DNA from: Neoarius graeffei
Taxonomy: Eukaryota; Chordata; Actinopteri; Siluriformes; Ariidae
Length of the DNA: 64,000 nt
Assembly: GCF_027579695.1 (NCBI RefSeq)
Contig: NC_083577.1
Location: forward strand, 34,441,698-34,505,697
Direction: 5' to 3'
Shown here: positions 2,489-62,689 of the stretch, one piece after another
Position numbering within the stretch: position 1 is the stretch's first letter
Layout of the letters: each line of letters opens with the position of its first letter
Notes under the pieces: generated by a model
Told to the model about the DNA's origin: nothing
Databases searched by the model: none
What the model saw: only the letters and a program-made list of their open reading frames with translations
Translations under genes and position numbers: made by a program

Positions 2489-2918
2489 TGTAAATATGAA
2501 TATACAACCCCTGGCAAAAAGTATGGAGTCACCAGTCTTGGATGAGCACTCATTCAGACATTTTATTCTGTAGAACAAACTGAGATCACAAACATGATAC
2601 AATAATAAAGTCATTCCAAAGTGCACCTTCTTGGCCTTCAGGAAAAACTAAAATAAACGAAGAAAATACATTGTGATAGTCAGCAAATGTTACTTTTATA
2701 GACCAAGCACAGGGAAAAAAATATGGAATCACTCAATTCTGAGGAAAAAAATATGGAATCACTCAATTTTCAGGTAGAAAATAAGGACTCACCCAGTCAA
2801 TTTCCTTTCCCTAAATTGACACCTGCCTCAGATTAGATCTGCTCGTTAGTCTGCAGTTAGAAACAGCGCAGTTATCACACCTTGGAGGGCTGCTGGACCA
2901 AGTGGATTGGCAAGAATC

Positions 2919-40787: not shown

Positions 40788-41848
40788 CAGACCCTCCAGG
40801 ATTTCGCGATTTGCAACTTCAACACACATTCAACCAATCCCCGTGAATTCAGGGCGGTGTTGCAATTATATCCAATCACCGCAATTTTCCTGCAAATTTG
40901 ACCAATCGTTGGCGTCGTCTTGAGGTGACGTCGACAAACTACCTTCCGCCTTACTTCCAGTGTTGCCAGATTGGGCAGTTTCCCGCCCAGTTGGGGGGTT
41001 TCAAGTGCATTTTGGCAGGTTTTGAACATATTTTGGGCTGAAAAACGTCAGCAGTATCTGGCAACACTGCTTACTTCCGTGTTTCCGTTCAAGAGAAGCA
41101 GCATGTGCGAGTCAGTGTTTCTGTAGGCTTAAATTCTGTTACTGAAAGTGTGTTATGTTTACAGTGAAGGACTGTGTGCACTTTACATTTTTTTTTTTTT
41201 TACTTAATACAAGAAATTAATGGATGCCAACATTTTTACCAAAATGGTATTTTATTTTCCATTGTTTAGGCAGCTTCAGCATCATACTGTGAGATTCTGT
41301 TCAAATTCTTTTTTTCTTCTATGAAGCCTGAGCCATTTATTTTATTAGTTTATAATTATTGTTTAATTTAGTCTTCAGGAGAGACTGCCTGCACACAGTA
41401 CTAGTATTAATAGTTTTTTTTTCCTTACATGAAAGCTGAGGCATTTATATTATATTTTAAGGTAACTTCATGTTGTGCTGTGAGGTTCTATGGACTTTAA
41501 CTTTTGAACCAACAGGTGCATTTGGATAAGTAAAGCCTATTTTTCTGCATTTTTGTAGTCCTGGTAATCTTTTATATTGGTGAAGTTGTTTATAGGACCA
41601 TTTCTCAGTGTCTTTGTTTTTTTTAATCAATAGTTTTTCAGTAATAACTTATCACTCAATTTTAATCACAAAAAGAGAAAATCGCAACAATTTCTCGCAA
41701 CTTTCACTTCCTCCCGCAATGTAATCGCAACAAAAACCTAAAAAACACCGCAACTTTTCATCACAATTTTTTGGAACCCCCCCCGCAACATCAGACATTT
41801 TAGCCCGCAACAATCACAAAAAAGGCCCGCGGAATCCTGGGGGGACTG
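40788..41848. mobile_element. hAT-type element inside SINE copy 10
   Basis: Inverted ends: CAGACCCTCCAGGATTTCGCG, and from the right CAGTCCCCCCAGGATTCCGCG, with shared subterminal runs of CGCAA. The flanks AATTGGT and ACTGGTG suggest a hAT-like duplication of about 8 bp with changes. It carries the mini-MITE at 40958-41069 and no protein. Confidence 0.85.
40958..41069. mobile_element. Mini-MITE (hAT type), copy 1
   Basis: 112 bp with ends CAGTGTTGCCAGAT...ATCTGGCAACACTG. Perfect 8-bp target duplication CTTACTTC (40950-40957, 41070-41077). Internal core AAGTGCATTTTGGC and TTGAACATATTTTGGGCTG. It carries about 20 bp extra (a duplicated GGGCAGTTTCCCGCCC region) compared with the three other copies. 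Confidence 0.95.
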
Positions 41849-42459
41849 ACTGGTGACTGTAGGTGTGAATGTGAATGGTTGTCTGTGTCTGTGTCAGCCC
41901 TGTGATGACCTGGCGACTTGTCCAGGGTGTACCCTGCCTTTCGCCCGTAGTCAGCTGGGATAGGCTCCAGCTTGCCTGCGACCCTGTAGAACAGGATAAA
42001 GCAGCTACAGATAATGAATGGATGGATAGTTTATTATTTTAATTAATTTATTTATTTTTTAAAATATAGTTTCTGCTTTTGACAGCTGTTTTTCACCGTC
42101 TTTCCTTGCAACACCATTGCGCAGCGCCACTTCCGGCTACTCATTGACCAGACAAATTTTGCCCAGTCAGAGAAAATTTCACTCCAATACAGCCTGAAGG
42201 AGGGCAAAACAAAATTCGCTGCAATGGAAATGCATGGATTAAAGTTTTCCGTCGCTACGACGGATTTCCGTCAACTGGGAGCGCTAGAGGTCAATAATGA
42301 GAGTGATGCAGATCCGAGGAAAAAAAAAGGGGGGGGTAGGCCCATAGGTCTGACACCGATGTGATTTTAGAACTTCACCAAGCTGCTGTGATTGCCTGTT
42401 GTTGAACCCTTTCTTGTGCTATGTTTGAGTATATGTAAAGGAATAAGTTGTTGCGCTAG

Positions 42460-42780
42460 ATAGGCCTAAATAAATAAATACAGCCTCCGCTACTGTCTAG
42501 TCCTGGGGAGGTTTGGCGTAGGCAGCAAGCCGCGGTGCTCGGCTTGAGTTTCGTTTCTATCGGCGGCTCCAGCCCGACTTTGGACGCTTGTAACTCGGCC
42601 AGGGGAGGTCCCAGCCTCTCCAAACTTGGCAGCCAGCGACCTCTGCCCTCTCCCCAATGAACCAGCGCTGCCAGAGCGGGCCAGCCCCGCACCTCGGGAC
42701 GCGATTCACCCCGAGGTGAGCTGCGGCGCTCCGCATCAGTTTCCTTTTAACGGCGGCTCCACTGATGAAACAATCTGGCT
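42460..42780. other. GC-rich block of unknown nature
   Basis: About 300 bp of sharply G+C-rich sequence in AT-rich intron, including CTTGTAACTCGGCCAGGG, GTCCCAGCCTCTCC, GACCTCTGCCCTCTCCCC and two near-identical GGCGGCTCCA(G/C) motifs (about 42563 and 42762). No terminal repeats or convincing reading frame. It may be an unrecognised retroelement or a captured sequence. Confidence 0.4.
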
Positions 42781-44689
42781 GTCCTACTACTAGGCAACTA
42801 CTTGCCTACCACTAATACTAGGCCTATTGTAGTAGTAATAATAATATTTGCCTATTGAAAGGCGATCAGGTGAAAAATCTAAACAGCCCCGTTGAAGCCG
42901 CAGCAAGACCTACGCTATTAAGCCTTTTGTAGGTTAAACAGGCTTCGGCAGACAGCGTTCTGGAAAGGCTGTGTTTTTCTTTGGTTTGATGAGCCTACGA
43001 TTTAATCTTTAAACATTATGGTTTCAGCAGTTCGCTTAAACATTGGAGGCTGCAGAGTCGGGCTGCAAGATTTCCCGACACTTGTTTAAGATGCCAAACT
43101 TCATAGTAAGGAGAAATAATTCCACAATATTTAGTGCCTCGTCAGTCTCAAAAATTAATAGTGAAAGACCAACGCGAATTAAGTCCCAAAAAACATTTCG
43201 TAGGCCTATATTTTACATTTTCAAAAAAGTCTGGAATTGGAAGTCAGTCAGTGGAGTGTAATGAAGTGTCTCATTCACTAAGCACAAAAGGTCGGAAAAC
43301 AGTGGAGAAAACAGCTATTGCTTAAATAGGCTACTAATGTTTTACATTAAATTACTAATGTATGTGACAAATAAATTCATTGATTAAATAGATAAAGAAG
43401 CGAATACTCCGAAGCTCAAAATTCAGGAAAGTGGCTCCGGTGTCGCAAGTGCACAAGAACAGTTATTTGAAAGTTAACCTGATGAATTTGTGCGTGCACG
43501 TGCGATTTCATGAAGAACCGGGACAATTGGCATTCGGTGAAAGATTCACACCTATTACTCATTATATTCGCGCGCGCCCTCTCGCCCACTGCTGCTTCGT
43601 TTTCCCCATTTACACGGGTGTCTGAAGATGGAGTTTTCAGAAATCTCCACTCTGCCCAGAGTTTGTGAAAGTAGCTGTTTTCAGTGACTGAAACCTCCAT
43701 ATAGGTGTGAATGAGCGGTGCAACCGAATAAATAAATATGCGTCTTTTTTATCCGGCTACATGTAGGCTATCACTGCGCAAAGCCTCTAATGCTGAAATG
43801 GTAGTAATATTTGTTAAAATAATAGTAGGCTAATTTCCACATTAATTGGTAAAATGGCACAAGGGATGTAATGGGGGGATGGCCGTTTTATAAGGGGGAT
43901 GATTTGAGATTTTTATTTCAGAAGGGGGATGCCTCCCCCCACATCCCCCCTCAACTCGAGTACTGTGTATAAGGCCATATTTCACCGGACATAGGCCCTT
44001 CGATTTCCATCACTAGAGCGCGTCAAATTACTTTCGGTTTTGCCAGCATGGACGTGCTTCTTTTAAATGAAGGCACAGATGTGTCAGACATCGACAGAAC
44101 AGTAAAGAATAAGTGGAGATGGGCTTGGCGAAATGAAATGGGCGATAATGGCAAGCTCCTGCTGCTGTGCCAAGGAAAAAGAAACAAAAACAGGCATCAG
44201 GTGTTGCCAAACTAGATGCCTTTGGCTTCACTGCGAAGAAGCAGAAAAAGTGAACTTTCACTTTACTTTTCTTGATTCCTGGCTTTATTTCAACAGATTT
44301 TCTTATTTTTCTTTCTGTTCCACTCTTTTGAAAGCATGGTTCAAGTTCGACTGCACTTGCACTTTTCTCTTAACCACTGTTGTGCATTACTAAAGTACTG
44401 TTGAAATAAATTTGCACTTTGCCCTGAAAACTTGATGTTTCATCATTTATAGCCAGTAAAGACAATGGTAAAGTTTTGCCTTAGCTTTAGTCATTGTTAA
44501 AATTATGTAAATGTACTATAAATAGGGGCCGAAGGGATAATGGATAACACGGCGTTTAAAATTTGACGCATCGCTGACGTGGTAGGGGCCGACGACATGG
44601 AGCTTTTTTTTTTTTCAGTCAGATGATTATTATTTATTTTATTTTATTTTTTTGCTTTAATCCATGGAAATGTACCACTCTCTGTCTCC

Positions 44690-44728
44690 TGTTTCTCTCT
44701 CTCTCTCACTCACTCACTCACTCACTCA

Positions 44729-44773
<45 letters not shown>

Positions 44774-44819
44774 CATCTTGCTCCTTCATGTGATGTATGA
44801 TGATGATGATGATGATGAT
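44690..44819. repeat. Compound microsatellite (CT)n(CTCA)n(CA)n and (ATG)n
   Basis: CTCTCTCTCT, then about six ACTC units, then about nineteen CA units, and after ~30 bp about seven ATG units. Confidence 0.95.
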
Positions 44820-44904
44820 TTACAAAAAAACAAAAATAAATGGGGGTATGTTTGCAAGTTGCACCGGTGGGCATAGATATAAAATTTACTTGGACTGTCT
44901 TCAA

Positions 44905-45184
44905 AACTAACTAGTTGCAGTCTGGAGCCCTGGCTTTATCCTGGTCAGGGTTGGGGTGGACCCAGAGCCTATCCGGGGAATGCAGGCTGGATCACCAGTT
45001 CATTGCAGAATACCGTGTGCAAACACTTCGACGCACTCATTCACGCCTGGAATCACCAGTCCACATACTGCAGCCCAGTAGAAACCCAAATGGGGAGAAC
45101 ATGCACAGAAATGCTAAACAGACCATAACCTGAGATCGGGATCGAATCGGAGACCCTGGAGCTGTGAGGTGGTCACGATTACCC
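44905..45184 (-). mobile_element. Old degraded SINE-like repeat
   Basis: Resembles the reverse of an old tRNA-headed repeat: GGCTTTATCCTGGTCAGGG, GAGCCTATCCGGGGAATG, CACTCATTCACGCCTGG, GGGGAGAACATGCACAG and GAGCTGTGAGGTGGTCACG, in the same order as the reversed SINE body. Much more diverged than the ten copies of the young family. It is interrupted at 45185 by a hAT element and resumes at 46469. Confidence 0.6.
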
Positions 45185-46468
45185 CAGCGCTCGAAACTAA
45201 CGGTGTCCCGACGTCCCGGGGACCATAAAAAATGTCATCGGGACACAAAATTATCATATCTGGGACAATCCCGGGACAATGGAAAAAAATAGATCTAGAA
45301 AAAAAGTTCTACATTAATATTATTTACAAAGCCGTAACACATATGTAGACATTCACCTAATTTGTTAATTTTAAAACGTTAACAGCGAAAAATACATAGT
45401 AGCTACACTTTCGATGCACCTGCATCCGTAGGCTACAGAGCAGCGCATTCTGTTCTAGAATCTTCGGCCGGAGTCCGCATTATATGGACTTGGAATGGAA
45501 TTGCTAGCGCACATGCTGCGCCGACTCTTGCCAGAACAAAAATGCTGAAGTGGTTGAAGCGGACCGACCGCAGGGAAGAAACTGAAAGCCCAGACATAAC
45601 GTCTCCGGGACCTTCAGGATCCAAAGTGTCATCGCCTGGTCTGCAGGCAACGCTAGCAACTGAATGAACTGAATGAACACTGTTAGACACGTTATAAAAT
45701 ACAACAGGAATGATGTGGATGATATTGACGGAAGATACCGTTCAACAGAATAAGTGAGTTTTCTTGGTGTCTTTCTAGTTCAGAAAGTTTAGTCAGTCAG
45801 CAGCACAACTAGGCTCGGACCTGCCACTATCAGTGTTGCCATATACTGCTGATGTTTTCCAGCCCAAAACGTATTCAAATCTGCCAAAATGCACTTAAAA
45901 CCGCCCAATCTGGCAACACTGGCCACTATGCTGATGTTGCTAACATTTGCACCTGGCAGCGAAAGTTCATAAAATGGATAACGGAAAGTTCATAAAACTG
46001 GATAACGGTAATGGTGAAAATGATAAGTTGGCCTTATAAGTGCCAACAGATATTCAAGGTATAAGTAGATGAAATGAACATAAAAGGGGTCTTATTTTCA
46101 GCTAAAGTGTACTGCAGATGTAGGGACTCGAAACATTTTCTGAATGAGCTAGTTGGCCCCTTTAAATAAACGGGTATCTATTCATACAGTGAGATCGCCA
46201 ACGTTTAATAAACTGAAAATGCAATAACTAATTTTGAAGTAGATGATGTATAGGACATGTGTCGCTTGTGACTTATTGTAAAAAATGATATAAAGGGTTC
46301 AAAATCGCATAGTTACAAATATAATAGTAACTTCATATGATAATATTAACCACTGGTTATTTCAGAGAGGAAAAAAATGGGGACACTATTGCTTCCATTT
46401 GGGACAATACAACACAGAATTCGGGACCACTGGGGGACACAAAGAAAAAAAGTTAATTTCGAGCCCTG
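45185..46468 (+). mobile_element. hAT-type element with perfect 8-bp duplication
   Basis: Ends CAGCGCTCGAAACTAAC and, inverted, CAGGGCTCGAAATTAAC. Perfect 8-bp target duplication GATTACCC (45177-45184, 46469-46476). A short frame from the ATG at about 45543 reads MLKWLKRTDRREETESPDIT, then SPGPSGSKVSSPGLQATLA, resembling the serine-rich start of hAT-like proteins; no further domain survives. Contains the mini-MITE at 45831-45921. Confidence 0.9.
45831..45921. mobile_element. Mini-MITE (hAT type), copy 2
   Basis: 91 bp, opposite orientation to copy 1, ends CAGTGTTGCCATAT...TCTGGCAACACTG. Perfect 8-bp duplication GCCACTAT (45823-45830, 45922-45929). Nested in the hAT element at 45185-46468. 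Confidence 0.96.
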
Positions 46469-46559
46469 GATTACCCGCTGCTCAAGCCAGATCTGAAGTT
46501 CAGACAGACGGGTTGAGACTAGAACTATGATTTAATTCTAACGTCCCAGGCTTCTTGTG

Positions 46560-46750
46560 GAAGCAAGAGAATTAAAAACGGAAGTAGTTCAGATGTCTAG
46601 ACGTTGGACTACTACTGATTTGGAAGGTGCGAATCCCAGCGCACCCAAGACACCACTGCTGGGCCCTTGAGCAAAGCCCTTCACCCTCGACTGCTCAGCT
46701 GGATAAATGGATAAAGGCGTCTGCTAATGTAATGCCGTTAATGTAAATGG
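46560..46750 (+). mobile_element. SINE-like remnant with AATGCCGTTAATGTAAATG tail
   Basis: GGGCCCTTGAGCAAAGCCC, CGACTGCTCAGCTGGATAAA and GGCGTCTGCTAATGTAATGCC form the conserved 3' part of another fish SINE family. The 5' part is diverged. The same GCCCTTGAGCAAG motif occurs in the SINE at 25204. Confidence 0.65.
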
Positions 46751-47490
46751 ATTTGATGTACGCTTCTGTTTGTCCCTCGTTTCCTGGTAGGCATGCTGTA
46801 GGAGGGCTGTAGAGAGTGATGGTACTGTGTTCTCGTCCGGTTCCACAATGCGCTCGTTGTGTCGCCCTCCTCCCCTCAGTACCACGGCTGGTGCGGGCAG
46901 CGGCAGCAATGCACTCTGTAGCAGGGGCCTGGATCACGGGACTCGGGCTCTGTCTCATCACACTTTTTATATTTGCAAGGCTCCAGTTTAAGTGTTTATT
47001 CAGATGTGTCTGTGTAGTGCAAGAGTGTTCTCACTTGGTACGATGGCCATTTATAAAATTACAAACCATCACAGCCCCTGAAGGCTTCGTCTCTTGTTCT
47101 GCGGAGACAGTGTTGCGACAGTCTGGGCTTGCTTCCTTCCTTATTTCATTTTATTGCTCTAAAACAACATTCATATATTAATGTTCTGCTCTCGTCTCAT
47201 TTCACACTAATTGCATTCAGTGTGGCGAGGGGATCACAAACACGTGTGACATGAAATGTTTTTTCCACTAATATTACGTGATGTTTCACGGTGTGTGCAG
47301 CTTTGTGACCTTGGCGTTTAAGTGCTTTTGAGAATTTAATTTTGTAGATTTAATATTGTAGAGAACGATTTGTGTTTACACTCTTGACGGAGAAATGCTT
47401 TCATCATATTTTATTATGAAATGAACTTTTACGTCTCCGTCTCACTTAACACGTTTTTTTGCTTGTGTTTTTTGTTTTTTTGTTTTTTAG

Positions 47491-47565
47491 ATCTAGCTTT
47501 AGAGTCCAATCCGTCAGACCATGCTCGTGCTAGCACTATCTTCCTCAGCAAGTCTCAAACAGATG
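47491..47565 (+). CDS. ccnyl1: ccnyl1 coding exon 2
   Basis: 75 nt after a strong pyrimidine tract and TAG acceptor, before donor G/GTGAGT. It completes the split Asp codon and encodes LALESNPSDHARASTIFLSK then SQTD. This block is nearly invariant in cyclin Y and CCNYL1 proteins and contains serine/threonine sites in the pre-cyclin-box region that binds partners. LALESNPSDH fits CCNYL1 better than CCNY (LNMEFNPSDH in human). It ends one base into a Val codon. Confidence 0.96.
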
Positions 47566-48137
47566 GTGAGTTATCAACAGCACACGGCAAAGAGTTTCAT
47601 TTGATTCTGCTTCTGCAATTAAGAATGGAACACAAGACCATGTTTTGATTGTTTATCTCCTCAGCTGCGGTTATTAATTCTCTCTTTACGCTCTGTGTTG
47701 CCATATTTTATTGGCAGAAACATTTAATTGCAGAGTTGGATGTTATTGTGTGTGCAGGTCACCGAGGCACTTGACATTTATAGACTGGTACCAAAATTCA
47801 AAAAAGTGCTTATTTAAGGAGTTAAAGGCATTTTTGAGACAAAGTCGGCAAACAGAATATAAGAATTTTGTCAATTTGGGTGTGCCGAATTCAAATCTGC
47901 AATATGCCGAGCTCTATCTGACCTCTGTTGACCTCTAGAGGTCATTGAACTTTGGGCCTGTAAACGTCTCAGCTGAACCCAGTTTCTCAGCTTTCTAAGG
48001 AATGAAATGTCCTAAAATGATTAATGAAGTTAGCAAATGGCCTTGTTTGTTAAATGTTTGGGTGCTGAATTCATTTTTCATTTGTAAAACGACATATGAC
48101 CTCTGATAACCTCAAGGTCATTAAACTTGGCCTATAG

Positions 48138-49572
48138 ACCCTTTTCACGTGACGTCACGACAAACGCGGCCGCCATTTTGGACATGTACTACGAGTAGTT
48201 TACCACAGCCAGCATTGAGGAACAGCAGCAAAGAAAGTGTTTATTTTCAGCAAGACTTCCATCATGCCACTATATTGTTGTGCACCTGGATGTAGTAACC
48301 ATCAACAAACAAGGCAAGGGTTATCATTTTATCGGATCCCGGTAGATGCTGACCGACGGAGAAAATGGATAGCGGCCATAAACAGGAAAGATTGGCAGCC
48401 CTCGGCATACCAGCGCTTGTGTAGTGACCACTTTGTTGGAGGTAAGACGAATAAAATTAGCCAGAAAAGGCATTACATTGCTGTTAACATTCTGTGGCGG
48501 CGAGTGTGTAACCAAACAGGCTAAAATAACCCATTGTAACCTCTTTGTTCTTCTGTAGTAGCTATTAGCTAACGACATTAGCTAGCGTTGTGTTCCTTTG
48601 CTGTTGGTAGACTGTAGGACAGATCAGAGGCAGTGTCCTACAAACGGGGGGAGCAAGCCGGAGCGCGCTCCGGAACCTCGGGCGTTGGCTCCGGCAGCTA
48701 TTTACACTGGATCCGGTGATCCGACACCTCTTTTGACTATGTAACAAAAAAAAAACAACAAATAATTAAATAAAAAAATGCAAGTTTATTTAGTGTTAAT
48801 GTCTGATTTTGATATCTGCCTTGTTGGTGATTTCTCTCATGAAACGATATCCACAAAATATCTGCAGATGAACTTAATTTGCAGTGTTATTACAAAACAT
48901 GCCCAGAAGCGCAGCGCCCCCCCCCCCCCCCCCCCCCTTTTTTTCCGCACCGGAGCCGCTCATCCTCTGCGCTCCGGGACCTCCCACTTTACAAATTAAG
49001 CACTGCCTACTAATAAGTGTTCAAAACAATAGGAGCATGTATTTGTCTCTTAAATCCAGGTCGTTCCCTGTAATCTGTAACAACGGTTGGAGAAAGTAAT
49101 GGCAAATAGTGAGTGCACAAACTGTAGAAGGTAAACTGTACACAGCGCCAGGGCAGTGTGATGGTATGTCTACTTTTAGATTGTGTTAGCTTATCAATGA
49201 ACACACTCGTCACTCGACGAGTTTCACGTCTTTACGACGGATACTTAAATGTGTGTTCGGTATTATTGTTGCAGTCTAAGCAGTCATTGTAGCAGCTAGA
49301 TGAGCGAGAACCGAAAAGGTCTGTGCCATAAACCGTTATTTCTGTACGGCGTTGCTAATGTGTCGTTACTGTTGTTATTTCTCCCTCTGCTCGCCCTGTA
49401 AATGCCCTACGTCGCTGGATAGCGAAGGTGTTTTCTGCATCTCGCTCCTTTTTTTTTTTCTTGTATGTTCTCCGTTTGTCGCCTTCCTCGCATTCAAACC
49501 AATTCGAGCCGAAGTCCGCTACATGTCCAAAATGGTGGTCGCGTTTACGAAGGTCACGTGACTGAAAAGGGT
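48138..49572 (+). mobile_element. THAP-coding DNA element inserted in the palindrome arm
   Basis: Ends are inverted: ACCCTTTTCACGTGAC and, from the right, ACCCTTTTCAGTCACGTGAC, followed by matching CGCGRCCRCCATTTTGGACA. CTATAG is present on both sides (48132-48137, 49573-49578). The intact right arm shows the empty target GGCCTATAGGCC, so the duplication is 4-6 bp. It contains a THAP zinc-finger exon. Superfamily open: P-like or another THAP-carrying group. Confidence 0.85.
48264..48441 (+). CDS. THAP domain exon of a DNA transposon
   Basis: Starts MPLYCCAPGCSNHQQTRQG, then LSFYRIPVDADRRRKWIAAI, then NRKDWQPSAYQRLCSDHFVG. This is a full THAP-type zinc finger: C-x4-C at CCAPGC, the invariant Trp in RKWIAAI, and C-x2-H in CSDHF. 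THAP fingers bind DNA and are found in P-element and Kolobok-type transposases and their host derivatives. The frame meets a GT donor (GGAG/GTAAGA) straight after DHFVG, as expected for the first exon of such a gene. The following exons are not recognisable in the remaining ~1.1 kb, so the element is probably internally deleted. Confidence 0.85.
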
Positions 49573-50576
49573 CTATAGGCCTATGCATTTAACGGCATTT
49601 TTAAACTGACTTTACTCCCCCAAAAAGAATATGAACAGACAAAAAACAAATAGAAAGGAACAAATACAACATTAAATGCCAGTCCATGTACATGTGACTT
49701 ACTTTTCACAATGAGAATGCCTAGGCGATCACCTTACATAACATTGCATTACATTTAGAGGTTATTGTTTATACAAAGCTACTGAAAAAAGGACAGATTC
49801 AGCAGCATACAAAATGTGGGGGCATACAGGGTATACAGCTTAATCAGGGTTAGTATATATGAGAGTTTTTTTCTTTGTTGTTTGTTTTTTGTAAAGGCTT
49901 TACCCCGTTTAAAACAAAAACAACAAAGAAAAAAACTCTCATATATACTAACCCTGATTAACCTGTATACCCTGTATGCCCCCACATTTTGTATGCTGCT
50001 GAATCTGTCCTTTTTTCAGTAGCTTTGTATAAACAATAACCGCTAAATGTAATGCAATGTTATGTAAGGTGATCGCCTAGGCATTCTCATTGTGAAAAGT
50101 AAGTCACATGTACATGGACTGGCATTTAATGTTGTATTTGTTCCTTTCTATTTGTTTTTTGTCTGTTCATATTCTTTTTGGGGGAGTAAAGTCAGTTTAA
50201 AAATGCCGTTAAATGCATAGGCCTATAGGCCAAGTTTAATGACCTTGAGGTTATCAGAGGTCATATGTCGTTTTACAAATGAAAAATGAATTCAGCACCC
50301 AAACATTTAACAAACAAGGCCATTTGCTAACTTCATTAATCATTTTAGTACATTTCATTCCTTAGAAAGCTGAGAAACTGGGTTCAGCTGAGACGTTTAC
50401 AGGCCCAAAGTTCAATGACCTCTAGAGGTCAACAGAGGTCAGATAGAGCTCGGCATATTGCAGATTTGAATTCGGCACACCCAAATTGACAAAATAAGAC
50501 TGTTTGCCGACTTTGTCTCAAAAATGCCTTTGGGTGTCACAGTTCTGGATTTTGGTACCAGTCTATTATATTTCCC

Positions 50577-52238
<1,662 letters not shown>

Positions 52239-53325
52239 ACGTTTTTTTTTTTTAAATGGTAAACCTATGATTTTCAGCTACTGCTGGTTATCAATGTACA
52301 CAGTGGCTCTCAAACTGAGGTCTGAGGAAGCGGTTCTCAAATATCCCTTTTCCACCAGCAGGGAATGGGTTCCGTTCTGATTCATGCACCAAATTTTGAA
52401 CCGTTCAGAGCATTTTGACCAAAAATAAACAGGTTCGGCCCCTGAAAACTTGGTTCCCAGGTGGAACCAAAGTCTCGCTGGTTTTTCCAGTGCAAGCCGT
52501 GATGACCTCAGTGGGCACGTCCTTAGTCTGGAGAGGAAGCAGAGCACAGGAATGCAGAACGCAACGGAAAAGGATACATCTGTAGACGAAAAATGGAACA
52601 AAAACGCACATCTGTCAAAACAGAACAAAAGCTTGCAGGTAATCGGTGCAGTCTGCCATCTTGCTGCTGTTTACTCCTGTTGTGAATTGTGCAACGCCCT
52701 CCGTTCTGGATTACAATAGCACTATTGTAATGGTAACCAGGCACCAAGGTTCAGAGAGTCCTGAACAGAGCCAGTTCAAGAACCTGTTCCCTATTGGTCA
52801 AAAAGCGGCTAATGTGGCGGCCATGACCAAGGGGTCCTTAGTTTTAAATAGTTGCAGTGGTGGAAATTGCGATCCACAATTTTCAAACTTATTATATTTA
52901 GGAGTCCAGAGCTTTGTAATAAAATGTTGTATTCATAAGAGTTAAGCTTATTTATTTATTTATTTATTTATTTATTCTCTCTCTCCCCACCTGTTTTAGG
53001 GCATGGAACAATTTTGTGTTTTCTTTTACTGTTTTTTTTTTTTTAATTGTATAAGCACATCCATGAAGTAGCCATCCACTATCAGTTCAGGAATAAGGCT
53101 CTATGGCTCATGTCACGTTTATAAAATAAATCCATGTTGAGTCGCTCTGTGAAATTTGTTTTACACTTAAAGGCGTCCCCACCTACAAAAAGTTTGGAAA
53201 TGATTGCTGAATCTGTCCTGAGAATCTGTATATATCTATCTGTTACACAAAATGTAGTGATGTGTGAGTTAAATGTGAGGGACTCTAACACCCCCCCCCC
53301 CCCCCCCCCCTTTTTTTTCTTTCAG

Positions 53326-53360
53326 TTCGGGACAAGAGGAAAAGCAATCATATAAACCAT
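53326..53360 (+). CDS. ccnyl1: ccnyl1 coding exon 3 (35-nt microexon)
   Basis: Acceptor TTCTTTCAG, donor CAT/GTAAGT. Completes a Val codon and encodes RDKRKSNHINH, the short basic segment that in human CCNYL1 reads REKRKSNHINH. The KSNHINH form is specific to CCNYL1 against CCNY (KSLFINH), which supports the paralogue call. Phase closes exactly at the donor. Confidence 0.94.
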
Positions 53361-53442
53361 GTAAGTCAGCTCAGTTTACTGCACTTCCAGTGAACTCGGA
53401 GAAAGCTCCTGTATGTGGACTTAGATTTGATTTTTGTCTCAG
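53361..53442 (+). other. ccnyl1: ccnyl1 intron 3 (82 bp)
   Basis: Minimal intron, GTAAGT...TTTGTCTCAG, the only short intron besides intron 5 (106 bp). No inserted element, in contrast to its neighbours. Confidence 0.92.
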
Positions 53443-53543
53443 GTCTCTCCTGGTCTCCTGTCCAAAAAATACAGCTCCTGCTCGACGATATTCATCGATG
53501 ATAGTACAGTCAGCCAGCCCAACCTGAAAAGCACAATAAAATG
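53443..53543 (+). CDS. ccnyl1: ccnyl1 coding exon 4
   Basis: 101 nt encoding [20 protein letters not shown], then [13 protein letters not shown], ending two bases into a Cys codon at [18 protein letters not shown] matches the cyclin Y segment with the conserved phosphoserine that recruits 14-3-3 in CCNY, and STVSQPNL precedes the cyclin fold. Residue identity with human CCNYL1 is high ([20 protein letters not shown] in human). Confidence 0.96.
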
Positions 53544-53761
53544 GTGAGTTGAATAACTGCTGCGGTGTGGAGGCTTTCTCACTGCTAGCTGTCTTTACTG
53601 TTGATGTGGTGCTCACATGTGATTGTGTGTGTGTGTACGCGCGCGCGAGTGTGATGAAACAATGAAGTTGAATTGCTGCCTTTTTTTTTTTTTCACTCCA
53701 TGGCACAGTCCACATAGTCACAGTTCCTCAAGATATAAAGCTAACAGCTGTGTGGTGTTGC

Positions 53762-55378: not shown

Positions 55379-55469
55379 GTTCTCATACAATATAACAAGT
55401 CACACCACAATTACTTATAAACTGCCTTGATTTATTGTGTTTTTTTTTTTTCTCTCTCTGTCTCTCCAG

Positions 55470-55505
55470 TGTTACTTTAGCAATATATTACCATATTAAA
55501 AACAG
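55470..55505 (+). CDS. ccnyl1: ccnyl1 coding exon 5 (36 nt)
   Basis: Acceptor TCTCTCCAG, donor AACAG/GTATGT. Completes Cys and encodes VTLAIYYHIKN plus two bases of Arg, identical to human CCNYL1 here. This helix leads into the cyclin fold. Confidence 0.96.
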
Positions 55506-55611
55506 GTATGTCACAGTTTATGCAACCTTTTTTTTAAATGAAAAAATTGCCGATTGTGCACGAGATATTACTGTGTTAATATGGGAATCATCCTCGCTTG
55601 TATATCTACAG

Positions 55612-55663
55612 GGACTCTGACAGATCACTGGACATATTTGATGAGAAGAAGCATCCTCTGTCT
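55612..55663 (+). CDS. ccnyl1: ccnyl1 coding exon 6 (52 nt)
   Basis: Acceptor ATCTACAG, donor TCT/GTAAGT. Completes Arg and encodes DSDRSLDIFDEKKHPLS. RSLDIFDE is the CCNYL1 form. Phase closes at the donor. Confidence 0.96.
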
Positions 55664-56564
55664 GTAAGTGCGTCCTCCTGTGAGCCGCTCCAGTGGACCA
55701 GAGACTGACAGATGGTTTAGTTTGTTTGCTTGTGCTCACTAAAAGTCAGCCTGAGATTACACTTTATCTCCATCTGCTATATTTAAAGCATATCAGTACG
55801 TGAGGCTGGGCAAGACGTAATCTGTCACTCAACTCAAGATAGAAATCATCTGATGTAGCGCTGTTTTTACAGCTCATTTTCTCCATTTTTGTGACACTCT
55901 TTTTATGAAAAGGGAAAATTATTTTTACCAGCAGAAGGTTTGAGCATATTTAACAGTTATTCCACAAAATCAAGTCGTACATGAGCTGATGGCTGACGAG
56001 GTGCGTAGCGCTGAGTCGGCTGTAAGCCGTGTACGACGAGATTGAGTGGAATAACTGTTTTATTCTATCCACATTCACTGGATTTTGAGAAACGGAGCAT
56101 TTTTATTTTTTGCAAATTTGATTTAACTTTTTTTTTTTATACAAAACGTCCAACAAAGTAATTTCTGCTTAGAACAGGGTTTCCGCGGAGTCTTAAAAAG
56201 TCTAAAATTTGATAATCCTAATTTAAGGCCTTAAAAAGTCTAAAATACGAGCATATTTTGCATTGTAGGTCTTAAATGTAATTTTGTGAAGTCTTAAATC
56301 CTTACGTCCATTTACCCCATTCGTTTTTTTTTTTTTTTTTGTTAAATGCGTTGGTGATATTCATAATTAGTTATATAGGCTAGGCCTACTTAGTATCAGT
56401 AGGCTACGCTGCAAACTACAAATGAGACACAGTGGAATCCGGCGTCTAGCCCAGTTGGCATGGTGATGCACAGGGCATGGTACGCACGCATTTAGACAGT
56501 AGAGCCTCAAAGAAGCGAGGGAGATTGTCACGGTTTGTAGCAAAATGGGCAAATGCAAGTTTAA

Positions 56565-57451
56565 AGGAGTACGCCACCCCCAGGTGAAATTGAGTCAGTC
56601 CCTGCAGTCCCTAGAGTTGGATGAGTGAGCCAAAGCGTTTAGTAGCCGACCCAGCCATTGCCCTGATCTAGAAACGCCCCGGTTAGCTTTAGCTTAGCGT
56701 AGTCGCTGTAATCCGGCGTGTCCAGCTAGCATTGTCGTTGCAAAAGTGAATCAAATAACTCAAGATTTTTTATAATTATTTCTCATGACCTGTACATTCA
56801 CATCGAGTACACATATCAATGCAAATTAACACGAAGGGATTTACTAGACCAATTTATATATGGAACTATTTTCGGCCACAGCACAGGCAAAGCACCGCTG
56901 CAGGCGCAAAGACACCACGCAGCACCTGAAAACTCTCAACTTCCGTCAATACACCAGCGTGACTACTAAGTTCTCTGCTACTAGCAGTGTTGCCAGATAC
57001 TGCTGACGTTTTCCAGCCTAAAATATGTTCAAAACCCACCAAAATGCACTTGAAACCGCCCAATCTGGCAACACTGGCTACTAGGCTGACACTGACAGGT
57101 GCTGCGTGGTGTCTTTGCGCCTGCAGCGGTGCATTGCCTGTGCTGTGGCCGAAAATAGTTCCATATATAAATTGGTCTAGTAAATCCCTTCGTGTTAATT
57201 TGCATTGATGTGTACTCGATGTGAATGTACAGGTCATGAGAAATAATTATAAAAAATCTTGAGTTATTTGATTCACTTTTGCAACGACATGCTAGCTGGA
57301 CACGCCGGATTACAGCGACTAAGCTAAAGCTAACCGGGGCGTTTCTAGATCAGGGCAATGGCTGGGTCGGCTACAAAACGCTTTGGCTCACTCATCCAAC
57401 TCTAGGGACTGCAGGGACTGACTCAATTTCACCTGGGGGTGGCGTACTCCT
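56565..57451. mobile_element. Foldback element with TTAA duplication
   Basis: 887 bp between TTAA copies (56561-56564, 57452-57455). Ends AGGAGTACGCCACCCCCAGG are inverted, and the arms pair over about 400 bp (CTAGAAACGCCCCGGTTAGC at about 56670 against its inverse at 57331). TTAA duplication indicates the piggyBac or Kolobok group. The loop carries the mini-MITE at 56985-57076. Removing it restores the BED-finger frame. Confidence 0.92.
56985..57076. mobile_element. Mini-MITE (hAT type), copy 3
   Basis: 92 bp with ends CAGTGTTGCCAGATAC...TCTGGCAACACTG. Perfect 8-bp duplication GCTACTAG (56977-56984, 57077-57084). Same orientation as copy 2. It sits near the fold centre of the TTAA foldback, making four levels: intron, hAT, TTAA foldback, mini-MITE. 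Confidence 0.96.
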
Positions 57452-58562
57452 TTAACGACTGCTGGCTTGAACGCAATGATTCCGTAGACTGGTTAAAACG
57501 TGTACCAAACAATCCGTTTGAGGCATACTGCACATTGTGCAAAAGAACACTCAAACTCGGCACCCTGGGTGTAAAGGCACTGGAGTCGCACGCGAAAGCG
57601 GAGAGGCACCAGGCTGCCCATAAAAGTCTGCAACAATCGCATGCCATCACTCAATTTTGTTCACCGTTGTCAGGTCCAAGCACATCTCCAGACGGTGTAT
57701 CAGCTAACTCCGTGCGAACTGTAACGTTACAACAAACAAACCGTACGGAATCGGATGCCTCATCCTCAAGTGATTTGCGGGATGTCTTTGGCTCCACTGC
57801 AACTTTAGTTCCTCATTAATGCAAGAGCGCACCCTAGGGATGTAAAGAGTTCATTGGTGAGTGATGATAAATTTTGTTATTTTGAAAGTAATTCAGGCTC
57901 TCCCAATTTTCTTTATTTTTTTTGTGCGGCATAAGTCTTAAATTTAACCTGTTATGGTCTTAAAAAGGTCTTAAGTCTTAAATTGAACTTGTTCAAGCCT
58001 GCAGAAACCCTGTTAGAATGTAAACAAACTGGCAAAATGACAGGAGCAATTTGTAAAAAAATGTGATAATAATAATTCTTTAAAAATAAAAAGATGTCGT
58101 GTTCCCATCAGATAGTTTTTATTCCATATTTTGTTGCTTTTTTTTTTTTTTTGTATTTTTCAGGGGCTTTTGTTTTCAAGTAGAGGTTTTATTTTGTCCT
58201 CGGTTGGTTCAGCAACACGCTCTGCCATTTTCTTCTTCTTTGCTTTTTTTTTTTTGGTGGTTGGCAAACCAACTTAAAGGTGCATTACCGCCACCGACTG
58301 GGCTGGAGTGTAGAATGGGAGGTATTTGAGTGGGGGGGTTCTATTCTTTTAGCTATTTCTGTTTCTTTTAAATACTTGATGATAAAGTGGTGCATCTGAC
58401 TTGATGCGTTCCGCCATGGTTTTTCTCTACTCGCGGTATGTGAGCTGATATCCTAGTAGTAGAGTAGCCAATCGGAGTGCACGATTGCTCATATCCAGTG
58501 GATGGAATGGTGTTTTAGTATTTAGTAGTGATCTTTCATTTACTGCGATTTGCACTAAAATG

Positions 58563-58986
58563 CACTTTCATGATGTCTACTGCAAAGCTTTTGATAGTAT
58601 CAATCACCAGACGATGTTTGCAGTTCTCAAAGCCTGTAGCATACCCAACCGTCTAGTCTGCGCAATCCAGAAAACCTGAAAGCAAAGGTCCTTACTCCCG
58701 ATGGCGAAACAGGACTTTTCTCAAAATTCATGCAGGAGTTACGCAAGGTGACGCCCTAGCACCATTTCTCTTTGTCGTTGTGCGAGATTGTGCTCTTTGG
58801 AAAGCCGTTCAGGGTAAGGAAGTAGATTTTGGATTCACCCTGCACCCTCGTGCTGGCACCAGAAGAAGGTCAATTCCTGCAACAACCATTTGTGATTTGG
58901 AATTTGCTGATGACATTGTGTTGCTGTCGAATGAAATCGCCCAAGCTTGCCAACTACTTCATGTTGTTGAATCAGAGTGTCAAGTC
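58563..58986 (+). mobile_element. LINE reverse-transcriptase fragment, part 1
   Basis: Encodes FHDVYCKAFDSINHQTMFAV then LKACSIPNRLV. After frameshifts come HAGVTQGDALAPFLFVVVRD and RSIPATTICDLEFADDIVLL then SNEIAQACQLLHVVESECQ. GVxQGDxLAPFLF and FADD are RT palm motifs. It is + strand, unlike the RTE-like LINE at 22150, and of a different family. The protein resumes at 61378. Confidence 0.85.
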
Positions 58987-59420
58987 AAGGTTGTTTGTAT
59001 AGCGCTTTTAACAATTGACATTGTCCCAAAGCAGCTTTACAGAATCTGAATGACCCAAGACATGAGCCAGTTTTATCCCTAATCTATCCCCAATCAGCAA
59101 GCCCGTGGCTACGGCAGCAAGGAAAAACTCCCCCAGACGACATGAGGAAGAAACCTCGAGAGGAACCAGATTCAAAAGGGAACCCATCCTCATTTGGGCA
59201 ACAACAGACAACATGACTATAACATTAACAGTTTTAACATGAAGTCAGTTTCGTTGATGTTATAAACTCTTCACTGATGGAAACTTGAGTGCAAAACTGT
59301 TCATGACAACTGCAGTCCTAAAGTTAGCAAGTCAACTGTCGTCCTCAGCCATAAAAGCATTACTGTAAGAGTCCAGAGCGTCCTCCAAGTGTGACTTTCA
59401 ACTGTCCGTATGCGGCCGTA
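58987..59420. repeat. Dispersed repeat, copy 2, inserted in LINE
   Basis: The first ~210 bp share the motif series of 37091-37283 (TATAGCGCTTTTAACA, GCAAGGAAAAACTCCC, GAGAGGAACCAGATTC, GGGAACCCATCCTCATTTG). The remainder to 59420 is unique. Its right part probably resumes at 60033-60135 beyond the palindrome. Confidence 0.75.
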
Positions 59421-59522
59421 CATGGATGCAAACGACGCGCCTTTTGGCGGATGCCGCCTTTTTCACGGCTGTCTGGGGGACTTGTGTGAATCGTGCAGAT
59501 CCGATGAGTTGTTTTTAATTTT

Positions 59523-59553
<31 letters not shown>

Positions 59554-60032
59554 CGTTGGAGTGTCTGATTATAATTTCATCAAAGTAAATTCTGTATTAA
59601 AATTACTAAATAAGCAAATGCCGTTACAGTCCATGAAACATAGGAAGTACAAGTATGAGAAGAAAACAGTAAATCAGAAAGCTGTGCACGTAAAGCCAAT
59701 TACGTAACTTGCGTTGGACTGATGGAAATCCTTGCGCATGCAGTGAAGTGCAGCCAGCAGCAGATAATGGCGTGCAGCCAATTGGCTTTACATGCGCAGC
59801 TTTCTGATTTACTGTTTTCTTCTCATACTTCCTATGTTTCATGGACTGTAACGGCATTTGCTTATTTAGTAATTTTAATACAGAATTTACTTTGATGAAA
59901 TTATAATCAGACACTCCAACGCCCCCCTCCAAAAAAAAAAACAACTCATCGGATCTGCACGATTCACAGAAGTCCCCCAGACAGCCGTGAAAAAGGCGGC
60001 ATCCGCCAAAAGGCGCGCCGTTTGCATCCATG
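59421..60032. repeat. Foldback palindrome, ~275-bp arms
   Basis: Left arm CATGGATGCAAACGACGCGC ... pairs with the right arm ending ...GCGCGCCGTTTGCATCCATG. Inner pairs include CAGACACTCCAACGCCCCCC (right) with its inverse at 59550, and AAGCCAATT/AATTGGCTT at the loop edges. The loop is about 60 bp (59708-59775). Poly-T (left) and poly-A (right) runs mirror each other. No gene. Confidence 0.9.
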
Positions 60033-60139
60033 CCTACAGGAGCGATGTGATGAGAGACTCCAACCAGACGTATGGCATCAGGATGGATCAGGCAGGTCCG
60101 AGGAGCAGAAGAGGTCAGCATCTCTTTTGAGTGCCTTAA

Positions 60140-61374
60140 AGGTCCCATGGCATGGTGGTTTGTTGATGCTTTAAACGGGCTCGTGGAGGTTTCCGGATGT
60201 TATATCCGCAGCCTTTCTCGAAATGAACCCTCGGCACGTAGATGTAGCCTCCTGGGAGAAAGCCCCATTTCAGCGCTTTTCCCAGTGCGTCGTTTTGCTA
60301 ATGAGAAGCAGGAGGCGGGGAAGGGTAGAGGGTGGGGGCGGGTCTTATCATTAATATTTATGACATGTAAACGTGTTACCTCTGATTGGCTAACAGCACT
60401 GTGACGCTACCTCCAGTGGGTCAGAACAAGCGGATGTGGGTGTCTTACTATGGCGAGAGAGAAGGAACAAACCGCGAAGGGAAAAATACCGCGAGCTGAC
60501 GTCATTAAGGTGCGACGCGAGGAAATAAAATAAATTCAACAAATGTTTGGGTTTTTACTGAACAAACAAACAAATAAAATGAACGAGTGACTTAAAAAAA
60601 AGAATGTGGGTGTCTTTGTAAAAACTGTTTTGATTGGCTATTATAACAGAGCATGCTGCATGCTTTTTGGTTTTGTAGCGCAGAGTACCTGGCTAACTGC
60701 AGGAAGCGGTTAGCTGCACAGCTAATGTAGCCATTGCAAGGCTAACGTGGCATCGATTTTAAAACACGGCAAAACGACTTAACAGTTATACGCTTACTTG
60801 TTCGGTGTTTGTTGCTGATGCGGCAGGGATGCTTGGTACGGACCCAGGCTTCAGTGACAGTTGATGTGCAAAACCTGCCCTGTACTGTCCCAAGTTGTGG
60901 AAGCATTCCTCAGGAAAACGCTTCCGACAAACATACACCGTCTTAGGTAGACTCGACGGCGTATTATTGGAGTAAATAAAATTAAGCCACTGCGTCTTCA
61001 GGGGCTCTCCCGTCGGCAGTAAAAACAGACTCTTTTCTGTGTTGTCACATCCATGTACAGCGCAACTTCCATGTTTCGCTCGCTTAGGTGGTGCCATGTT
61101 GTTGTGTCCTCTATGGTCTCCTCACTACAACTGGGCAGGCAATTCATACAGTGGGTGGGAATCCAGAGGGGGGGCGTGGGGATCATCTCCCTTGCTGACG
61201 TAGTAAAGGGAAGAGCTTATCAACGCGCCGTTTTGACGCGCCATTCTCAAATGTTGGGCATAGTTTGGTTTACACATTATGAAATTTCTAGCCACTGGGG
61301 TGACTTAAGAAGGTCAGAGGAACTCATTTTAACGTTAAAAAACCTCAAAGTGAAAATTTCATGCCATGGGACCT
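60140..61374 (-). mobile_element. Kolobok-like element with TTAA duplication and THAP exon
   Basis: Inverted ends AGGTCCCATGGCATGG, with TTAA on both sides (60136-60139, 61375-61378). Kolobok elements combine TTAA duplications with THAP-finger proteins, and the - strand here encodes such a finger. The transposase itself is not recognisable in 1.2 kb, so this is a deletion derivative. It separates LINE parts 1 and 2. Confidence 0.85.
60789..61097 (-). CDS. THAP-like finger exon of the Kolobok-like element
   Basis: Starts MAPPKRAKHGSCAVHGCDNT, then EKSLFLLPTGEPLKTQWLNF, then YSNNTPSSLPKTVYVCRKRF and PEECFHNLGQYRAGFAHQLS. C-x4-C (CAVHGC), the Trp (KTQWLNF) and C-x2-[H] spacing are THAP-like, but the final zinc ligand is Arg in CRKRF where His is expected, so the finger is probably dead. 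A GT donor (GAACAA/GTAAGC) follows TNTEQ at about 60795, consistent with a spliced transposon gene. Confidence 0.75.
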
Positions 61375-61377
61375 TTA

Positions 61378-61964
61378 AAGTCTGCTTGAGGATCAATTCG
61401 GGCAAGACAAAATCAATGTACTTCGACATGGATGTTCAACCATTGCACACTATGGATGGGTTGCATATAAATCAAGCCTTGACTGAGGGTGGTGATCAAG
61501 ATTTTAAATACCTTGGCTGTTGGTGCAACAAAGAGAGAGAGATGTATACCGGTACTTGCAAAGCCCTTGCCTGGAAATCTCTACACAAGCTCAACAAAAT
61601 CTGGACTCGTGATGTGCCGAATATCATCAAGATGCAGTTATTCCAAGCAACTGTTGAAACGATCCTTCTGTATGGAAGCTTCACTTGGTCGCTGACCAAG
61701 CAGGAAGAGATGTCTCTAGATGGCACCTATACCCGCATGTTGAGGAAGGTTCTACATTTTAGCTGGAGGGACAGAGTTGACAAGAAGACGCTATATGGTA
61801 AATTACCAAAAGTCTCTGATGCTATTCGAATCCGTAGACTCAATCTTGCTGGTCACGTGTTTGGAGACAAGTCGTTGCCTGTCCACCACACAGTCACTTG
61901 GCAGCCAACCCACGGTTCCTCGTCACATGGAAGACCACGGTCAACATTCGTCAACACGCTCCTC
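61378..61964 (+). mobile_element. LINE reverse-transcriptase fragment, part 2
   Basis: Continues the LINE of 58563: LRINSGKTKSMYFDMDVQPL, then FKYLGCWCNKEREMYTGTCK, then ALAWKSLHKLNKIWTRDVPN, LLYGSFTWSLTKQEEMSLDG, YTRMLRKVLHFSWRDRV and RIRRLNLAGHVFGD, to HGRPRSTFVNTLL. This is the thumb/C-terminal domain after the RT. One open frame of about 190 codons survives. Confidence 0.88.
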
Positions 61965-61967
61965 ATA

Positions 61968-62689
61968 AGGGGTGTTCACACGGCAGCTTTTACTCCGGTG
62001 TAGCACCGGGGCTGCCCCGGTAGAGCGTTCACACGGTACAAAGTTATCCCGGTGTAGCCCCTGAAAGCTGCTTAAACCGGTGCAAATCTAACCCTGCTCG
62101 GGAGGGGGTTTAAGAAATTTACTCCGGAGTAAATGCTAGTTTGCGGGGCAGCACCGATATAAAATGGGACGTCTGAACGCTACAGGGGTAGACTCGCTAC
62201 ACGTGAGGAGAGTTGATTACATACGGGCATTGCATAATTTGCATCCTGGTATTTTGCGCTTCCAAAATGGCGAATATCAACAACAACAGAACTGCGTGTC
62301 TTCCAGTGTTGCCAGATTGGGCGGTTTTAAGTGCATTTTGGCGGATTTGAACATATTTTGGGCTGGGAAACGTCAGCAGTATCTGGCAACATTGGTGTCT
62401 TCATCCACGTTGTTTTCCCGGCGCTTGGTGATGCCATGACAACCGGGAAAAGGAAGTACATTTTCACGCATGCACATATTTCATTTTCGCATTATTACTA
62501 TCGTATAGCACGGTCGCAAAAACTGCTGTGTGACCGCAAGTGGGGCTGCACCGGTGCTAACACGCTTCTCTCTAGTAAGCAGGTTTGTGACGTGTGAACG
62601 CTCCACAAAATTTACACCGCTGTAAGATATATCGCAACAAAATACATCGGTGCAGCATTGATGCAGATATGTGCCGTGTGAACACCCCT
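61968..62689. mobile_element. 722-bp MITE splitting the LINE C-terminus
   Basis: Ends AGGGGTGTTCACACGGCA (left and inverted right) with ATA on both sides (61965-61967, 62690-62692). Removing it with one ATA rejoins NTLL with IDTGLQHIDELEP. It contains the mini-MITE copy 4. Confidence 0.9.
62304..62394. mobile_element. Mini-MITE (hAT type), copy 4
   Basis: 91 bp, same orientation as copy 1. The left end is CAGTGTTGCCAGATTGGG; the right end ATCTGGCAACATTG has one change (ACACTG to ACATTG). Perfect 8-bp duplication GTGTCTTC (62296-62303, 62395-62402). Third level of nesting: LINE, 722-bp MITE, mini-MITE. Confidence 0.96.

What the first reader, a model, noticed from the sequence alone, without database searches (positions are those of the whole stretch)
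40958..62394. Four copies of a ~91-112-bp palindromic hAT mini-MITE, each with a perfect 8-bp target duplication
Copies at 40958-41069, 45831-45921, 56985-57076 and 62304-62394 share CAGTGTTGCCAGAT...ATCTGGCAACACTG ends and the internal core. Their flanks are exact 8-bp repeats: CTTACTTC, GCCACTAT, GCTACTAG and GTGTCTTC. Every copy lies inside another transposon, which suggests late, perhaps recent, amplification with a preference for repeat DNA or simply tolerance there. Such a tiny element with such clean ends is a good model for the minimal substrate of a hAT transposase.
Basis: seen in the sequence. Interest (0 to 1): 0.75.

Follow-up and report, generated by a model that had tools for sequence, protein, structure and literature searches.

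The report
Tiny curved hAT mini-transposon, mostly hitchhiking
A 91-112-letter non-coding jumping-DNA element occurs thousands of times in this animal genome, but many copies, including three of the four seen here, were multiplied by larger transposons they had landed in; its sequence also looks pre-bent, which might explain how so short an element can bring its two ends together.

Summary
In detail: four copies (112, 91, 92, 91 bp) lie at the stated coordinates with 14-bp inverted ends and perfect 8-bp target duplications. Genome-wide there are 7,198 places with both ends intact. The features fit a non-autonomous hAT MITE, in a genome rich in hAT transposase domains; no autonomous partner was identified.

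"Late amplification" is only partly right. Three of the four copies (c1, c3, c4) sit at one fixed site, with the same target duplication, in many copies of three different host repeats: 14 of 20, 22 of 30 and 19 of 20 host copies read. GTGTCTTC alone precedes 1,474 copies. These were multiplied by their hosts. Only c2 looks private (0 of 20 host copies read).

The 112-bp form loses 21-bp units in place, yet a short form with the same diagnostic bases also sits at several distinct sites, so short forms appear mobile. A/T runs repeat every ~10.5 bp, predicting a bend of about 90-110 degrees. I propose this bend helps so short an element pair its ends; that step is inferred.

The parts
40958..41069 (+). 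MITE copy c1, long (112-bp) form
   Evidence: the same 8-mer (at most 1 mismatch) on at least one side in 30 of 30 read relatives
40950..40957 (.). left target duplication CTTACTTC of c1
41070..41077 (.). right target duplication CTTACTTC of c1
40788..41848 (+). host repeat of c1 (about 1.06 kb, ends CAGACCCTCCAGGATT / AATCCTGGGGGGACTG; about 6-bp target duplication), inside another repeat that looks like a SINE (label recalled)
45831..45921 (-). MITE copy c2, 91-bp form, private insertion as far as sampled
   Evidence: 0 of 20 host copies read carry it
45823..45830 (.). left target duplication GCCACTAT of c2
45922..45929 (.). right target duplication GCCACTAT of c2
45185..46468 (+). host repeat of c2, hAT-like (ends CAGCGCTCGAAA / CAGGGCTCGAAA, perfect 8-bp duplication GATTACCC)
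56985..57076 (-). MITE copy c3, 92-bp form
56977..56984 (.). left target duplication GCTACTAG of c3
57077..57084 (.). right target duplication GCTACTAG of c3
56565..57451 (.). host repeat of c3, long foldback element flanked by TTAA (ends AGGAGTACGCC)
62304..62394 (+). MITE copy c4, 91-bp form
62296..62303 (.). left target duplication GTGTCTTC of c4
62395..62402 (.). right target duplication GTGTCTTC of c4
61968..62689 (.). host repeat of c4 (ends AGGGGTGTTCAC, flanked by ATA)

Best explanation
The four copies belong to one family of non-autonomous hAT-type MITEs, mostly 91-113 bp, with 14-bp inverted ends and 8-bp target duplications. Shown: copies stand at different sites with 8-bp duplications; several of those sites lay inside other repeats, which then multiplied and carried the MITE along, in one case at two nesting levels. 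So the copy number is a mix of own jumps and host-driven copying. Also shown: the interior of the long form is built on ~20-21-bp steps (TTGG at 14, 34, 55, 76), units of about 21 bp are lost in place, and a short form with the same diagnostic bases sits at several distinct sites. Inferred: an unidentified hAT transposase of this genome acts in trans, and the helically phased A/T runs give the DNA a built-in bend that helps an element about as short as DNA's bending persistence length to pair its two ends; loss of 21 bp (two helical turns) keeps that phase.
For: 8-bp duplications: 25 of 40 hits of the 91-bp query and 27 of the 30 read (of 40) hits of the 112-bp query match at 7-8 of 8 positions; 42 cross-class pairings of flanks give 3-8 mismatches. 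7,198 places with both ends intact, reversed-pattern control 0. Host carriage, filled/empty: 14/6 of 20 (c1), 22/3 of 30 with 5 unclear (c3), 19/1 of 20 (c4), 0 filled of 20 (c2). 1,474 and 382 left ends preceded by GTGTCTTC and CTTACTTC, of 15,128; about 0.2 expected for a given 8-mer at equal base frequencies. Second nesting level: 21 of 28 c1-host left ends fall into two shared outer contexts. In-place unit loss: c3 hosts carry both lengths at one site, and the short ones are not one clade (AU p 0.007). Short form mobile: the 91-bp diagnostic bases at c2 and at c4 and several other sites. Phased A/T runs and curvature. hAT domains abundant: 150 scored of 11,558 candidates.
Against: 'Empty' hosts could in principle be precise excisions. 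The curvature is predicted from wedge parameters recalled from memory, not measured; the second, AA/TT-only model is a toy. A role of the bend in transposition is untested, and the Mos1 study reports that in-silico analysis found no correlation of curvature or flexibility with transposition efficiency (PMC2642840, passages). With the period scanned, phasing is less striking (16 of 1,259 shuffles for the 91-bp form), and the autocorrelation of the interior is not significant over all lags (0.10). 15 of 40 copies lack a usable duplication. The c3-host tree is star-like, so the number of separate losses is soft.
Confidence: 0.8

Rival explanations
1. All copies are independent recent insertions by the MITE's own transposition, with a preference for repeat DNA.
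For: Distinct 8-bp duplications for the four window copies; c2 private as far as sampled; ten different duplicated 8-mers among the relatives read.
Against: c1, c3 and c4 occupy one fixed site in many copies of each host, with flanks that align over 510-738 bp for the c4 class; 1,474 and 382 copies share two 8-mers.
Confidence: 0.08
2. The phased A/T runs serve nucleosome wrapping or are a by-product of the ~21-bp internal units, and play no part in transposition.
For: 10-11 bp A/T periodicity is described as a nucleosome-positioning signal (PMC3940949, start of abstract seen); the interior is built on ~21-bp steps, which would carry one phase along.
Against: In the 112-bp form two of the six runs (54.5 and 75.5) fall half-way between the 20-22-bp series of the others, so a second, helically placed run per unit is also needed; a separate 92-bp subfamily is predicted to be as curved. 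Neither excludes this rival.
Confidence: 0.4
3. The TTGG-containing units are binding sites for the transposase zinc finger (subterminal repeats), and their loss or gain tunes transposition.
For: hAT transposases bind short subterminal repeats, in Hermes through BED zinc fingers (PMC10368747 and PMC3143072, passages); four TTGG at 20-21 bp spacing, reached by 1 of 2,000 shuffles for that period and 4 of 500 for any period 10-30.
Against: No cognate transposase is known, so binding is untested; units may be only deletion-prone repeats.
Confidence: 0.35

Closest known systems
hAT-superfamily MITEs
   Same: Ends begin CAG (hallmark recalled), short inverted ends, 8-bp target duplications, too short to code, high copy number.
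   Different: Very short (87 of 99 listed places are 88-96 bp), with an interior on ~21-bp steps; partner transposase unknown. Whether the family is already in a repeat database could not be checked.
Hermes / Tol2 / Tag1 / Ac (autonomous hAT elements)
   Same: hAT elements (superfamily); here too the left and right ends differ inside the 14-bp inverted repeats, as Hermes ends differ.
   Different: These need about 220 bp of both ends, 200 and 150 bp, about 100 bp of both ends, and at least 200 bp of both ends (PMC10368747, passages and section 15); the present element is 91 bp in all.
CMITE-IN of corals and V-SINE/MER6 composites
   Same: A MITE inserted in a proto-element, or a SINE part inside a MITE, spread as part of the new composite (PMC2872659 abstract and section 13; PMC6887750 abstract).
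   Different: Here one MITE rides in three hosts with different ends in the same genome, one of them nested again in larger repeats.
80-120 bp mariner MITEs tested with Mos1 transposase
   Same: Same physical puzzle of pairing the ends of an element about as short as DNA's bending persistence length (PMC2642840, passages).
   Different: There the transposase itself bends each end by ~90 degrees; here the bend is predicted to be in the DNA, and the superfamily is hAT.

Membership tests
hAT-type MITE | 8-bp target duplications at distinct sites | tested here: met
   the 10 empty host copies of c1, c3 and c4 have a single 8-bp copy, as do 11 of 20 for c2, the other 9 having small variants there
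hAT-type MITE | short terminal inverted repeats beginning CAG (feature recalled) | tested here: met
   14-bp perfect ends CAGTGTTGCCAGAT
hAT-type MITE | repeated, near-uniform length, too short to code | tested here: met
   pattern covered 91-121 bp; 87 of 99 listed places are 88-96 bp; lack of coding inferred from length
hAT-type MITE | autonomous hAT element with the same ends in the genome | tested here: inconclusive
hAT-type MITE | mobilised by a hAT transposase | not testable with these tools
   needs an excision/integration assay
host-carried passenger | same insertion with homologous flanks in many places | tested here: met
   met for c1, c3, c4; not met for c2 (0 of 20)
intrinsically curved DNA | A/T runs phased at the helical repeat and a strong predicted bend | tested here: met
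   prediction only
intrinsically curved DNA | measured curvature (gel mobility, cyclisation) | not testable with these tools
   needs a bench assay

The most novel reading that the evidence does not exclude
A hAT transposon can shrink to 91 bp, well under the end lengths that tested hAT elements need, because its interior is a pre-bent spring: five A/T runs in helical phase bend the DNA by about 90 degrees so that both ends can enter one transposase complex, and ~21-bp units can be lost in two-turn steps without breaking the phase. In the same genome it then multiplies further by hitchhiking inside other transposons' interiors.
Probability: 0.3. Interest if true: 0.72.

Novelty: new variant of a known kind. 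Interest (0 to 1): 0.5.

Why it matters
MITE copy numbers are usually read as a record of the element's own activity. Here the same 8-bp duplication recurs in hundreds to more than a thousand copies, so counting copies, or counting perfect duplications, overstates how often the element itself jumped. The element also makes a concrete test case for how very short DNA transposons pair their ends: about 90 bp is stiff DNA, tested hAT elements need roughly 100-220 bp at each end (PMC10368747, passages), yet this one sits at many sites. A phase-shift experiment on a 91-bp substrate would test that directly.

Tried and rejected
An exact 26-bp right-end pattern in IMG/VR contigs gave 0 matches. The literal 14-bp end in papers gave 0 papers; the 10-bp prefix together with 'hat' anywhere in a word gave 84 papers, of which the 20 listed titles look unrelated. 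A search on MITE and DNA-curvature terms gave 169 papers holding at least 2 of 5 terms, 15 listed; one (PMC4895274, wheat VRN1 promoters) names MITEs once and was not read.

First thought that the 112-bp form is the common one, because of the larger first-look candidate number (1,484 against 142). Rejected: an end-to-end pattern shows that 91-92-bp copies dominate the listed sample. Considered that 91-bp copies arise only by loss from the long form in place; rejected because one diagnostic 91-bp form sits at several distinct sites. Considered a single internal deletion in c3 hosts; rejected by two other deletions (L040, L054) and the AU test. misread host status through a range error and was redone; one search used unoriented loci and was redone; the grouping was redone. 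An earlier count gave 29 left ends; a recount gives 28. Target-site consensus: a base count of the duplications is dominated by one class, and I draw nothing from it.

Not obtained: the count of the CTAGTAGC class (c3) and of 195-225-bp palindromic relatives, because the search machine stayed busy.

Full report
What was checked. The 14-bp end occurs 9 times in the window at up to 2 mismatches against 0.42 expected; 8 of the 9 are the ends of these copies. Two of the eight ends carry one mismatch each. Only the 14-bp ends are inverted repeats; the whole is not a palindrome (41% self-complementary).

Copy number. A pattern requiring a perfect 17-bp left end and a perfect 14-bp right end, 91-121 bp in all, occurs at 3,608 + 3,590 = 7,198 places; the reversed control pattern at 0. 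The left end alone (17 bp) occurs 7,664 + 7,464 = 15,128 times, control 0. Of the 99 distinct places listed (all at the start of contig C1), 87 are 88-96 bp, 10 are 105-114 bp and 2 are longer. The 91-92-bp form is thus the ordinary one in that list, and the 112-bp form a minority.

Host carriage. All 40 scored hits of the 91-bp query were read (L001-L030 and L151-L160; the search had 142 first-look candidates). Twenty-five have flanks equal at 7-8 of 8 positions, but the 8-mers recur: GTGTCTTC in 13 copies, three other 8-mers in 3-4 copies each (two of those copies damaged on one side), and 9 copies in one class without a duplication. Flanks of the other 12 GTGTCTTC copies align with L001 over 510-738 bp at 94.9-97.4%, the MITE included. 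Of 40 scored hits of the 112-bp query (1,484 candidates), 30 were read; all 30 have CTTACTTC (at most 1 mismatch) on at least one side, 27 on both. Genome-wide, GTGTCTTC directly precedes the left end 1,474 times and CTTACTTC 382 times; at equal base frequencies a given 8-mer is expected about 0.2 times among 15,128 ends. In the 99 listed places, 16 and 5 belong to these two classes.

To avoid choosing by the MITE itself, I searched with each copy's right flank and looked at what lies upstream. c1: 20 of 40 hits read, 14 filled, 6 empty. c3: 30 of 47 matches read (window copy included), 22 filled, 3 empty, 5 unclear (L037 shows a MITE end short of two bases; L059 is the other arm of L045's host; L053, L057 and L060 match one arm only). 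c4: 20 of 40 read, 19 filled, 1 empty. c2: 20 of 40 read, none filled. The 10 empty copies of the c1, c3 and c4 hosts have one copy of the 8-mer, as a pre-insertion site should; at the c2 site 11 of 20 do, and 9 have small variants. So c1, c3 and c4 are each one old insertion multiplied by its host, and c2 is a private insertion as far as sampled. All hits are the best-scoring ones, so these fractions are not genome-wide estimates.

The hosts differ. c2's host is hAT-like (ends CAGCGCTCGAAA, duplication GATTACCC); c3's is a long foldback between TTAA; c4's has ends AGGGGTGTTCAC between ATA. c1's host is about 1.06 kb with a ~6-bp duplication (GTATTA, GTAAAG; ATTGGT/ACTGGT with one mismatch in the window). 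c1's host is nested again: of 28 left ends found among L061-L090, 12 and 9 share two outer contexts and 7 stand alone; of 19 right ends, 10 and 5. In the four window hosts the MITE sits in the interior and leaves the host's ends intact, which would let the host go on multiplying (inference).

Unit structure and in-place shortening. In the 112-bp form TTGG occurs only at 14, 34, 55 and 76; a four-mer chain of four at period 21 appears in 1 of 2,000 shuffles, and in 4 of 500 when any period from 10 to 30 is allowed. Overall autocorrelation is weaker (lag 21 alone, 0.003 of shuffles; best lag, 0.10). In c3 hosts long (112-113) and short (91-94) forms share the same site and mostly the same diagnostic bases; two short ones, L040 and L054, have other breakpoints; the short ones are not one clade (AU p 0.007, tree star-like). 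Loss in place therefore probably happened more than once. The other short lineages carry different diagnostic bases (TTTTAAG, and GGATTTGAAC or GCAGATTTGAA in the 91-bp lineage) and are found at several separate sites: c4, c2, and the AGCAGAGC, GCGGTATC and ATGACGAG sites, plus the class without a duplication (in the AGCAGAGC and GCGGTATC classes only 1 of 3 copies each has the full diagnostic). That is best explained by transposition of the short form itself.

Curvature. Runs of three or more A or T in the 91-bp form are centred at 23.5, 34.5, 44, 54.5 and 65.5, in the 112-bp form at 23, 43, 54.5, 64.5, 75.5 and 86.5: vector strength 0.98 and 0.96 at 10.5 bp, reached by 2 of 2,460 and 1 of 2,281 dinucleotide shuffles; with the period scanned from 9 to 12, 16 of 1,259 and 6 of 1,145. 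A wedge model gives bends of 90-110 degrees for the four copies; 0, 2, 0 and 4 of 400 shuffles reach this for c1-c4, and 5 of 400 for the 91-bp form. Of 6,316 non-MITE 91-bp windows, 0, 13, 6 and 20 are as bent as c1-c4; c1 is longer than those windows, overlapping windows are not independent, and c1's left flank is itself curved (93.7 degrees). Parameters were recalled from memory; a second, AA/TT-only model gives 95-122 degrees and 0, 2, 2 and 6 windows.

How it works, in steps. Shown: 8-bp duplications at different sites; fixed sites in multiplied hosts; both lengths at one host site; one short form at separate sites. Inferred: a hAT transposase in trans (hAT domains abundant; partner not found); the bend helps end pairing. 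Context from papers: Hermes needs about 220 bp of each end and unlike ends beyond the first 50 bp; Tol2 200 and 150 bp; [quoted passage not shown] Ac at least 200 (PMC10368747, passages and section 15). Mariner MITEs of 80-120 bp transpose in vitro, explained by ~90-degree bending of each end by the transposase; the same paper found no in-silico correlation of curvature or flexibility with efficiency (PMC2642840, passages). Composite spread has precedent in CMITE-IN (PMC2872659, abstract and section 13) and MER6 (PMC6887750, abstract).

Novelty. I found no paper with the literal 14-bp end, and a search for MITE + DNA curvature + transposase + bend gave only the Mos1 paper. These searches cover open-licence papers only; repeat databases were not available, and the family may well be catalogued there. 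The element meets the hAT-MITE features that could be tested; the predicted bend and the heavy host-borne copying are the parts worth following.

Noticed in passing
L017-L019, L157, L159, L160, L061-L090 (host of c1): Three separate insertion sites (CTTACTTC, CATGTGCG, TGTGCGAG) lie within about 45 bp of one host element; the last two overlap. L062 and L067 have the left flank of the first site and the right flank of the second, as if two MITE copies had recombined.
   Followed up: partly
G000:C1, e.g. 216169-216378, 3123482-3123691, 3198398-3198607, 3213566-3213775, 3941889-3942098: Twelve convergent pairs of left ends at most 230 bp apart among the first 100 listed left ends (0.09 expected), five of exactly 210 bp: longer relatives with the left-type end on both sides. 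Wider pairs (1,003, 2,064, 2,383 and 3,400 bp) may be chance.
   Followed up: partly
G000:C1:5723816-5723922: A 107-bp copy that matches the pattern on both strands, apparently a palindrome of two left arms.
   Followed up: no
G000:C1, one search list: By eye, 26 of 84 printed copies belong to a distinct 92-94-bp subfamily (AGGTGCTTTTTGGCTGG, mostly ending GTTAGCAATAT); its host context was not read.
   Followed up: no
G000:C1 0-28.5 Mb: Intact copies are dense near the start of the contig: 42, 28, 10, 6, 6 and 7 per 5 Mb (the last bin is incomplete).
   Followed up: no
L014, L022, L028-L030, L151-L153, L158, L024: A class of nine copies flanked by GGAACTGC / CTGATAAC without a target duplication, and L024 inserted a few bases away in the same host.
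   Followed up: partly
L111-L130 at the c2 site: The c2 insertion point is variable in length among host copies (GGACCTGC, GGACCTGCTGG, GGACCTGG, GGACCTG before CACTATG), and L125 and L126 show a different insertion there.
   Followed up: no
window 2850-3963 and 7607-8692: Open frames that look like Tc1/mariner-type transposases (label recalled, not searched).
   Followed up: no
window 50566-52300: About 1.7 kb of degenerate CT/GT-rich repetitive sequence, giving long spurious open frames.
   Followed up: no
window 49570-50231 and 47824-50531: Two near-perfect long inverted repeats, one lying within the other's interval.
   Followed up: no
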